DNA of 64,000 bases from Thunnus maccoyii (Eukaryota; Chordata; Actinopteri; Scombriformes; Scombridae): positions 15,208,791 through 15,272,790 of the forward strand of contig NC_056536.1 of assembly GCF_910596095.1 (NCBI RefSeq). The letters are read 5' to 3'. A model generated the notes under the pieces. That model ran no database searches. It saw only the letters and a program-made list of their open reading frames with translations, and was not told the origin of the DNA. Positions within the stretch are counted from its first letter, which is position 1. Each line of letters begins with the position of its first letter. Of this stretch, positions 7,801 to 10,800 are shown in pieces. The translations under genes and the position numbers were made by a program.

Positions 7801-10800
7801 ACAGTTTATGGATACTGTAATATATATATATTTTATAAATGCAATATTAACATACAATACTCAGAGAGGAACAACAACAGCTCGTGTCAATGTTTTATCT
7901 TACTCCTCTTAAAACTGCATACAGAATAAATACAAGAAATTGACAAGTTAATTTGTCAATGCAAATATGGGCTCATTTTTGAGGCTTCTGACACTTTTAT
8001 TAGTCACATATTAGTCAAACAGTAAATGGTCCTACCTTGCTAACCAGTGCAGGTGCAATTGTTTTATTGATATGCTCAACAGCTTTTGAGACACCTGCAA
8101 AGGACAAGCAGACTATAACTGACCCAGGCAGAGGAAGACCATGCAGAGCAGGCGAGACAGATGACCACAGAGTAACTTATCCAATCTTATGTGGAAGTAA
8201 AGTAAAATATCATTCAACAATCATGACGAAGACTGCGTTAAATGAGGGGATCTGATCCGATCTATTATTGCGCCCTTTATTGGGTTTTTCTTCTGAGATC
8301 TGTGAACATCTGTTAGTGCCTGCCAAGGTTAGTTTCCAAAGGCAAACCCATTCTTCATGCTGCTGTGCACAGCAATATGTCAGAGAGTCATCCTGTTATT
8401 CCACACTTTATTTACCTGGTTACACAATGCAGGGGCCAAGAATTCATTTATATATTTAACTGCTCTTTTGACTCCTAACAGGAGGAAGACAGACGGAGGA
8501 AACGGAAAAGAAGAAGTAAGAGATGAAGACAGACAGCTGAATGTAAAGTTGTGTTGACATGAGAATAACAGCAGAAAAGTGACAACCAGGGAGTTTAGAG
8601 AGAGAATCAATTAACATGTCTTACCTTTGCCCATGTAGCGTGTCTTGTCATTGTCACGGAGCTCCAGAGCCTCATAGATACCTGTGGAAGCACCGCTGGG
8701 CACTGCAGCTCTGAAAAGACCTTGGAGACAGAGAGGAGGATTGTGAATGTCATTTCCTAAAGTGCTGTGTCATGTCCAAGAAAGACTGCAAGGACTGAAT
8801 GCAGTTTGAGTAATGTTTTAATGCAATATTATGTCATCAACCGACTTTCCTGACTTCAAATGTCATCATTTGGATCATGTCATATATGATTATGAAGTGA
8901 TATTTTTTTCCAGCACAGAATCTGCATATATGTATCTAATCTGTATGTGTGCAGGAGGAACTGTTTAGTAGTAAAGGAGCAACAGCCAATAAAAAGGCAC
9001 TATGAGATGCCATCCAATCAGCTAAAGCCTCCCTCGTCACAGTACTGTTGTCCATCGGTTTTCCGTCCACAGAGAGAAATAAAGCATGTGGGAGGAAGTT
9101 GTACTGGCTGTGCTGCAGAAGGTTGTGATGTAACAGTCTGCCAACTGAGCATGTGCAGTGTATCTGTGGAAAGATGCCAAGCCACACCCATAAATAAGAG
9201 AATGGCCATTTTGGATTCACCCAAGGGAAGAGAAATTGGGGATGAGCAAAAATCTATTAGGTTTGCTCAGTGGACCGGCAGTGATGGGGAAGAGTCTGAG
9301 GGGATTTAGGGCTTAGGACAGGAGGACACAGCCGCTGTCTGGGACGTGCTTTCAAGCTTAGCAAATCATCTGCATCAAGACATCATCTGGCTGCAGCTGG
9401 GGGATACTGGCAACAATCCATCAGGCTATAAACTGAGATGTAGAGCTATCACATCATATCAGCCTTAATCATACATACTTGACAAGAAATCTAGAGCCCA
9501 AATACAATCCAAAGTAGTCTGAATTCACTAGCTTTACTGTGATGGTCTTTACAGAGAGATTTATGAGTATATAGTTCAGTTTTTATTTTGTGCTAATAAC
9601 CCCACCATGAGGATATAACAGTATCAGTGACTATAAATGTCTCACTACATTACCAGAGGTACTGAAAGGTTTTCTAGTATATCTGTGACTGAGAGGCAAG
9701 CTGGTTATGTAACAGAGCAAAACACGTTACAGTAACTATGACAGACGCGCTCTGGGTGCAGCACTCTGGCTCTGGTCTTTGCTGTAATGATGCCAAAATA
9801 AGCCTGACTGACTTAAAAGGGAATCTTGTCAAAAAAAAGAATAAAGGTGCTATTTACAGTAAAGTGGAGCACTAAGCAACCATCCCAAATTAATGAAGAG
9901 ACAGCAGGGTTGCAGAACAGAGCAGTCGATTTCCAGCCAATGTATTCAAGGCCATGTAGCCTATTCGACTCACTTCCATGTCATTGGTCATTCAGGTTGC
10001 TTCATTAACATTCTCAGGACATTTCATCGGGTTGAGCTAGTCCTTTGTTTTAGCTCTCAGAACTGAACAAGCCAACAAAAACTTTCAAAGTCTGGCCATT
10101 AGTTAATTGAATAACTTGATCTCAAGCTTTGGCAAAAGTGTCAAACAGTGAAGCGTTTAGATGTTTTATGTCCAGCAGCTTTATTTTGTAATGTTGCATG
10201 CAATTAGGTAAACATAGATTAAATTTACCTGACACCTCTGCACCTTTGCATGGAACAGCAAAGATTCAGCTCATATGTTTGCTAGAAGTACTGTACTTGG
10301 TATCTGTGCCCTCTTACAGGAATCATTACAGTAACACAGTGCTGTAGAGGCCGTGTGATATTACAGGAGCTATTTTCTCTCATTCATCATCTGACCTGAT
10401 CCAGCCTGCAGCTGGCAGCGGTGCAGCCACACTGGCTTCACCATCCTGATCCACAACTTAGCTGGTTTTCACAAGCTGATTAACTGGGCAAGACCCAAGA
10501 AAAAGTATGAAACTTTGCTTTCAATGTAATACAGCAGCATTACACATGCTGGTAATATAACTACATGTTTTAAGTTGTACAGGTTTTGTAAGCAGTGAAG
10601 TTTGATTTGTAACTAGAGCTGAAATAATTAGTTGATCAATTAGTCAATCGACTAGAAAACTAACCGGTAATTATTTTGATAATTGATTATCTTGTTTCCC
10701 CGTCTGTCTGTGCTGTGTTTTTTTTATTAGTAATGCTTTGTTTATATAATTGTCCATTGCTATATGTGTGTGTACAATTAATAATTTGATTTTTTTTAAT

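What the first reader, a model, noticed from the sequence alone, without database searches (positions are those of the whole stretch)
8036..8474. Tandem duplicated, mutually exclusive exon 4 in eno1
Two 59-nt exons (8416-8474 and 8036-8094) in the same phase, each with canonical splice sites and no stop, encode alternative versions of residues 61-80 that are about 50% identical. Since 59 is not divisible by 3, including both or neither breaks the frame, so frame alone enforces one-or-the-other use. The alternative version swaps charges and polarity (SK to KR, EH to KY, KT to EF, VSK to CNQ) while keeping the helix core. An isoform of a core glycolytic enzyme switched in this way would be notable. 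I do not know whether it has been described.
Basis: partly seen in the sequence, partly recalled or inferred. Interest (0 to 1): 0.78.

Follow-up and report, generated by a model that had tools for sequence, protein, structure and literature searches.

The report
Switchable duplicated exon in fish enolase
A fish gene for the sugar-burning enzyme enolase carries two different versions of one small exon, arranged so that a working enzyme can use only one of them at a time, which suggests that the fish can make two forms of this core enzyme from one gene.

Summary
The window carries eno1 on the minus strand with two 59-nt, phase-matched, GT-AG exons, alt4 (8416-8474) and can4 (8036-8094), encoding alternative residues 61-80 (10 of 20 identical). 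Either alone gives a 432-aa enolase; both or neither gives an early stop. Chance is excluded: the next best of 509 AG-59-GT segments scores 16 against 54.

Alt4 looks like a constrained coding exon. In the Pfam enolase context it scores 77.4 bits; 28 random mutants of can4 with equal divergence reach at most 71.8. Similarity stops at the splice sites. Some other tests are only borderline. The alt4 peptide was found once in the 782-Mb genome; four further enolase genes, one a close second eno1, show one exon 4 each.

Alt4 has the longest AG-free pyrimidine tract of 11 acceptors in the gene, can4 the shortest AG-free stretch, a layout reported for other mutually exclusive duplicated exons (PMC5224494). 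I infer regulated mutually exclusive splicing. Transcripts, other species and protein effects could not be tested. A new member of a known kind.

The parts
11099..11183 (-). eno1 first coding exon (from the ATG; the 5' part of the exon was not modelled), called e2 here
   Evidence: gene model; [28 protein letters not shown]
8625..8720 (-). eno1 exon 3 (96 nt, ends in phase 1: GGC AAA G|)
8475..8536 (-). end of intron upstream of alt4: 60 nt without AG plus the acceptor AG, pyrimidine-rich, with TCTT motifs and a consensus-like branch point (TCTTACT, A at -43)
   Evidence: AG-free stretch 60, tract 60 nt, 87% pyrimidine in the last 60; branch-point match by a recalled yUnAy consensus
8416..8474 (-). 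alt4: alternative exon 4, 59 nt, encodes [19 protein letters not shown] plus split Gly61
8095..8415 (-). 321-nt intron between the two exons; holds one TGCATG (8140-8145); the motif is at chance level in the window
8036..8094 (-). can4: canonical exon 4, 59 nt, encodes [19 protein letters not shown] plus split Gly61, 20 of 20 identical to human ENO1; AG-free stretch upstream only 16 nt
7575..7644 (-). eno1 exon 5 (70 nt), common partner of both exons 4
4832..7161 (-). eno1 exons 6-12 to the stop codon
   Evidence: e6 7028-7161, e7 6650-6872, e8 6008-6205, e9 5446-5647, e10 5229-5337, e11 5019-5077, e12 from 4895; stop codon TGA ends at 4832 by the sequence

Best explanation
Alt4 and can4 are a tandem-duplicated, mutually exclusive exon pair in a fish alpha-enolase gene (eno1). 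Can4 is the ancestral, default version. Alt4 is a diverged copy that still encodes a compatible enolase segment and is used in some tissue or state. SHOWN here: gene model, frame logic, significance of the homology, restriction of the similarity to the exon, retained enolase profile score, a single match to the alt4 peptide in the genome, and the unusual 3' splice site of alt4. INFERRED: the choice is made at the 3' splice sites. The long AG-free pyrimidine tract of alt4 is normally occupied by a pyrimidine-tract-binding repressor (PTB-like, or another competitor of U2AF), so exon 3 joins can4 with its short tract; when repression is lifted, exon 3 joins alt4 and alt4 joins exon 5. Double inclusion or double skipping is removed as a frameshifted mRNA with an early stop (nonsense-mediated decay). 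The product is an enolase with altered residues 63-64, 67-68, 71-73 and 78-80 of the N-terminal domain and an unchanged remainder, so most likely an active enzyme with changed surface, partner binding, stability or modification sites rather than changed chemistry.
For:: matched length, phase, splice sites; both/neither cause stops at nt 304/253; homology far beyond chance. Pfam Enolase_N bits can4 83.3, alt4 77.4; 28 of 28 simulated mutants (21 random nt changes in can4, open frames only) lie lower (mean 63.65, sd 3.91, max 71.8). BLOSUM similarity to can4 reached by 1.2% of 131,026 open simulants; the exon-exon alignment score is reached by 0 of 500 shuffles; the upstream and downstream introns show no such excess (178 of 500 and 84 of 500 shuffles reach the observed score); synonymous divergence can4-alt4 (0.67) is similar to can4 versus the exon 4 of the second eno1 (0.77), so the pair is old, yet frame and splice sites survive; alt4 is first of 11 acceptors in AG-free length (60; next 57), pyrimidine content of the last 60 nt (0.87; next 0.70) and TCTT count per 100 nt (5; next 4); can4 has the shortest AG-free stretch (16; next 17). 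(PMC5224494, Table 1 read): in 7 of 8 human homologous exon pairs the U2AF-repressed copy has the longer tract, in 6 of 8 the longer AG-free zone (for example FYN 7a 43/61 against 7b 11/35); more unpaired RNA upstream of alt4 (0.53) than of can4 (0.42), reversed at the exon start (0.36, 0.58), the same directions as in that paper (different measure, one pair).
Against: No transcript or protein evidence. No other species examined. A profile from 66 distinct segments of 80 prokaryotic enolases plus human ENO1 and ENO2 gives weaker support: 6.1% of open simulants score at least as high as alt4; 16.1% have at least as many residues identical to can4; changed positions are only marginally more variable than kept ones (p 0.06). 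dN/dS between the copies is about 0.64 (NG86) or 0.84 (LWL85) on very few sites, not clearly below 1. The second eno1 (C3) shows no alt4, so alt4 is dispensable in that copy. Helical-face clustering depends on the window chosen (0.03-0.06 for the 3 windows ending at residue 72, 0.25-0.33 for the other 12). The 321-nt spacing speaks against simple steric exclusion (recalled rule), so exclusivity rests on regulation plus decay. In PMC5224494 ACOX1 has the reverse tract order, TPM1 and P4HA1 the reverse AG-free order, and its authors' model (tract ligands competing with U2AF) is not the same as the default-repressor model that I infer. By recalled position weights alt4 and can4 have similar, middling splice-site scores.
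Confidence: 0.75

Rival explanations
1. Alt4 is a regulatory (poison-type) exon: its main effect is to be included together with can4, which shifts the frame and destroys the mRNA, tuning eno1 output.
For: Inclusion of both exons gives a stop at nt 304. Long pyrimidine tract and consensus-like branch point upstream of alt4.
Against: A poison exon has no need to keep an open frame, matched phase and an enolase-like peptide; alt4 keeps all three.
Confidence: 0.1
2. Alt4 is a decaying, unused relic of an exon duplication that happens to keep its frame.
For: An open frame survives in 65.5% of simulants, and 16.1% of the open ones keep as many can4 residues; dN/dS 0.64-0.84; 10 of 20 residues changed while can4 is unchanged relative to human ENO1.
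Against: 28 of 28 simulants fall below alt4 in the Pfam score; flanking introns show no similarity beyond shuffles while the exon does; both splice sites intact and the acceptor tract the longest in the gene.
Confidence: 0.12
3. The two versions are functionally equivalent at the protein level; the pair only offers a splicing-level switch, and the residue changes are near-neutral drift on a tolerant surface. (This can be true together with mutually exclusive use.)
For: 6 of the 10 changed positions have entropy above 2 bits across the enolases compared, and 2 more are conservative exchanges (K64R, I73L). Alt4 costs only 5.9 bits in the Pfam score.
Against: Changes at the otherwise conserved positions 68 and 79 (H68Y, S79N); weakly, the alternation of kept and changed residue pairs.
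Confidence: 0.25

Closest known systems
PKM exons 9/10 (PKM1/PKM2; exon numbers recalled), the classic mutually exclusive homologous exons of a glycolytic enzyme
   Same: Glycolytic enzyme, homologous tandem exons, one or the other used, whole-enzyme fold kept. PMC4465641 lists PKM among homologous exon pairs with solved structures (passages seen).
   Different: Other enzyme and other gene; the PKM pair lies in a regulatory region of the tetramer (recalled), the enolase pair in the N-terminal domain; no expression data for enolase.
U2AF1 exons Ab/3 and the related set FYN, TPM1, TPM2, CALU, ACOX1, MAPK14, P4HA1 (PMC5224494; abstract, sections 13 and 20 and passages seen)
   Same: One copy with a long pyrimidine tract and usually a longer AG-free zone, the other with a short one; in U2AF1 the copy with the less favourable signals is the more abundant. 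Alt4 60/60 against can4 16/16 fits this order.
   Different: No knock-down or CLIP data for eno1; tract lengths here were measured by a simple rule, not by the paper's SVM tool; ACOX1 departs from the tract rule and TPM1 and P4HA1 from the AG-free order in the paper's own table.
OGDH exons 4a/4b (PMC7969005; start of abstract in a search listing, and three unrelated passages seen)
   Same: Mutually exclusive homologous exons in a metabolic enzyme.
   Different: [quoted passage not shown] here the AG-free zone before can4 is only 16 nt, so no such distant branch point is indicated.

Membership tests
Tandem-duplicated mutually exclusive exons | Two adjacent exons homologous in sequence beyond chance | tested here: met
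   0 of 2000 sampled intervals; 0 of 500 shuffles
Tandem-duplicated mutually exclusive exons | Same phase, compatible splice sites, each alone gives a full-length protein | tested here: met
   432 aa with either exon
Tandem-duplicated mutually exclusive exons | Joint inclusion or joint skipping is unproductive | tested here: met
   stops at nt 304 and 253
Tandem-duplicated mutually exclusive exons | Transcripts with exactly one of the two exons are observed | not testable with these tools
   no RNA data held
Tandem-duplicated mutually exclusive exons | Conservation of the alternative exon across species | not testable with these tools
   the window's genome has no relatives in the tool; four paralogues show no alt4-like exon
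Alpha-enolase (ENO1) | Enolase N-terminal domain and closest match to alpha-enolase | tested here: met
   PF03952, 201.7 bits with can4, 195.5 with alt4, residues 1-150; best PDB match human alpha-enolase, residues 1-150
Duplicated exons of the U2AF-repressed long-tract type | One copy with clearly longer pyrimidine tract/AG-free zone | tested here: met
   60 against 16 nt
Duplicated exons of the U2AF-repressed long-tract type | Response of the pair to U2AF or tract-binding proteins | not testable with these tools
   needs knock-down or CLIP

The most novel reading that the evidence does not exclude
A vertebrate alpha-enolase is switched by mutually exclusive splicing into a second, selectively maintained isoform whose N-terminal-domain surface is rebuilt in one tissue or physiological state, giving enolase a PKM1/PKM2-like switch that would alter dimer stability, partner binding or non-glycolytic roles. 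Alt4 would have been kept in one of the two eno1 copies of this fish and be absent from the other, a division of labour after gene duplication.
Probability: 0.35. Interest if true: 0.75.

Novelty: new member of a known kind. Interest (0 to 1): 0.55.

Why it matters
Enolase is among the most conserved glycolytic enzymes, and its vertebrate diversity is usually attributed to separate genes (ENO1, ENO2, ENO3; recalled). A splicing switch inside eno1 would add a second level of isoform choice, comparable to pyruvate kinase. In this genome the two eno1 copies differ in having or lacking alt4, which makes isoform choice by splicing versus by gene copy testable. I saw no description in the listings of nine searches (open-licence papers only, most listed papers not opened). 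Gene databases could not be checked, and automatic annotations may already list the isoform.

Tried and rejected
Chance or pseudo-exon: rejected. Alt4 as a copy from another enolase gene (gene conversion): not supported, alt4 is nearer can4 (38 of 59 nt) than the exons 4 of the four other genes (26-33 of 59). Origin from a repeat family: the alt4 peptide gave one match in the genome search (that tool scores only its best candidates). Steric exclusion or OGDH-like distant branch point: not supported (321-nt intron, AG-free 16 nt before can4). RBFOX motif TGCATG between the exons: at chance level (60 in the window, 64 expected), not used as evidence. Low third-position GC of both exons (7/20 and 6/20, lower than in each other eno1 exon): not used, because by my own count on the letters printed the single exon 4 of another enolase gene (L086) is as low (7/20). 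Rfam: no family at gathering threshold in 4500-12500. Dating by a tree of the 59-nt exons: the forks that matter are unsupported, so whether the exon duplication is older or younger than the split of the two eno1 genes is undecided. Entropy test and the mainly prokaryotic profile: borderline (p 0.06 each). Helical wheel: inconclusive. Relatives in viral contigs: none confirmed. Paper on a streptococcal enolase's interfaces (PMC2809091, passages): nothing on residues 61-80 in the passages seen.

Full report
WHAT IS THERE. The minus strand of window 4832-11183 holds a complete coding gene for alpha-enolase (eno1): eleven coding exons giving 432 aa when one exon 4 is used. Residues 1-150 match human alpha-enolase best in the PDB (2psn, E 1.2e-87), and the canonical exon 4 peptide is 20 of 20 identical to human ENO1 in the printed alignment. 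ORFs with pentraxin, sugar-transporter and secretin-type receptor matches lie further along the window; I recall ENO1-CA6-SLC2A5-GPR157 as neighbouring genes in human, which would fit. Between exon 3 and exon 5 there are two 59-nt exons: alt4 at 8416-8474 and can4 at 8036-8094. Both are flanked by AG and GT and follow exon 3 in the same phase. Either one alone restores the frame; both give a stop at coding nt 304 and neither a stop at nt 253.

MORE THAN CHANCE. Of 509 AG-59-GT segments on the two strands of the window, 182 are open, and only can4 itself (96) and alt4 (54) score above 16 against the can4 peptide; without the splice-site requirement the next best open 20-mer scores 27. None of 2000 Markov-sampled copies of the 530-nt interval reaches 54 (largest 17). 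By DNA alignment the two exons beat 500 of 500 shuffles, whereas the upstream introns (178 of 500 shuffles reach the score) and downstream introns (84 of 500) are no more alike than shuffles. The similarity therefore ends at the splice sites, as expected if only the exon has been held by selection since an old duplication.

IS ALT4 CONSTRAINED AS PROTEIN? In the same 67-aa context the Pfam model Enolase_N gives 83.3 bits with can4 and 77.4 with alt4. Twenty-eight simulated copies of can4 with 21 random nucleotide changes (the observed number) and an open frame give 55.3-71.8, mean 63.65, sd 3.91; alt4 lies 3.5 sd above. In 200,000 simulations 65.5% stay open; of these 1.2% are as similar to can4 by BLOSUM as alt4 is, but 16.1% keep as many identical residues. 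Other weak results: with a profile made from 66 distinct segments of 80 prokaryotic enolases (the best 80 of 423 relatives found) plus human ENO1 and ENO2, 6.1% of open simulants score as high as alt4; changed positions are more variable than kept ones only at p 0.06; dN/dS is about 0.64 (NG86) or 0.84 (LWL85) on very few sites. Kept and changed residues alternate in pairs from 61/62 to 71/72, as on two faces of a helix, but the wheel test gives 0.03-0.06 only for the 3 windows that end at residue 72 and 0.25-0.33 for the other 12 tried. I conclude that alt4 has probably been selected as an enolase segment, with faster change than can4.

ELSEWHERE IN THE GENOME. The window lies in a 782-Mb genome of 54 contigs. 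The alt4 peptide gave one match, itself. Four further enolase genes were found: on C15, C10 and C22 (L085-L087) and a close second eno1 on C3 (L099). A scan of the four 9.9-kb loci, which include exons 3 to 5, finds one exon 4 in each and no second, alt4-like open AG-59-GT/GC segment. The single exon 4 of the C3 gene is of the can4 kind (15 of 20 residues). Alt4 is nearer can4 (38 of 59 nt) than to the exon 4 of the four other genes (26-33 of 59). Synonymous divergence between can4 and alt4 (0.67) resembles that between can4 and the C3 exon (0.77), so the exon duplication is of the order of age of the two eno1 genes; the 59-nt tree cannot order them.

HOW IT PROBABLY WORKS. By recalled position weights both exons have middling donors and acceptors among the gene's own. 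What sets alt4 apart is its upstream tract: 60 nt without AG, 87% pyrimidine, five TCTT in 100 nt, and a consensus-like branch point at -43. Each of the first three is the highest of 11 acceptors in the gene, though exon 9 comes close in AG-free length (57) and TCTT (4). Can4 has the shortest AG-free stretch (16 nt; exon 8 has 17) and no match to the recalled branch-point consensus within 100 nt. Kralovicova and Vorechovsky (PMC5224494; abstract, sections 13 and 20 and passages read) report that in pairs of duplicated exons the copy repressed by U2AF has the longer tract (7 of 8 pairs in their Table 1, ACOX1 being the reverse; the AG-free zone is longer in 6 of 8), and that in U2AF1 the copy with the less favourable signals is the main one. 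They propose tract ligands that compete with U2AF. The eno1 pair has the same layout. My inference goes one step further: alt4 is held off by a tract-binding protein by default and released in some tissue or state. Double or zero inclusion is then disposed of as frameshifted mRNA. Steric exclusion is unlikely because 321 nt separate the exons, and the distant-branch-point device of OGDH 4a/4b (PMC7969005; start of abstract in the listing, passages) is not indicated.

CONSEQUENCE FOR THE PROTEIN. Ten residues change: S63K, K64R, E67K, H68Y, K71E, T72F, I73L, V78C, S79N, K80Q. Of the strongly conserved positions, V62, A65 and V66 are kept, K64 and I73 change conservatively, and 68 and 79 change to residues not seen among the 68 and 64 segments compared there. 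Catalytic residues lie elsewhere (recalled), so an active enzyme with a different N-terminal-domain surface is the likeliest outcome.

STATUS AND NOVELTY. It is a new member of a known kind, homologous mutually exclusive exons, in an enzyme for which I saw no such pair described: nine searches of an open-licence library returned no such report in their listings. The main text of PMC4465641, a study of human homologous exons, does not contain a word beginning with ENO1. Expression and cross-species conservation are the missing evidence.

Noticed in passing
L099 (G000:C3:18509000-18518900), exon 4 at 5202-5260 minus: A second, close eno1 gene exists in the same genome (68-91% identity to the window gene over the four stretches matched), with a single canonical-type exon 4; probably the teleost genome-duplication partner (inferred).
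   Followed up: yes
window 26772-27443 +: A pentraxin-domain ORF (Pfam Pentaxin, 1.2e-33) lies near an exon at about 21.6 kb that by eye looks like the start of a secreted carbonic anhydrase; I recall carbonic anhydrase 6 of non-mammalian vertebrates carrying a pentraxin domain. The anhydrase part was not tested.
   Followed up: partly
L001-L008 (Nanoarchaeota/Woesearchaeota contigs): Eight DPANN archaeal enolases are 69-73% identical to the fish protein (tblastn best segments), above the other 72 loci kept (at most 66%); this looks like a eukaryote-type enolase present by transfer or by contamination.
   Followed up: no
window 62413-62856 +: Part of an aralkyl acyl-CoA:amino acid N-acyltransferase (glycine N-acyltransferase-like) gene (Pfam 8.3e-21).
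   Followed up: no
window 8036-8094 and 8416-8474 minus: Both exons 4 have lower third-position GC (6/20, 7/20) than each other eno1 exon; meaning unclear.
   Followed up: partly
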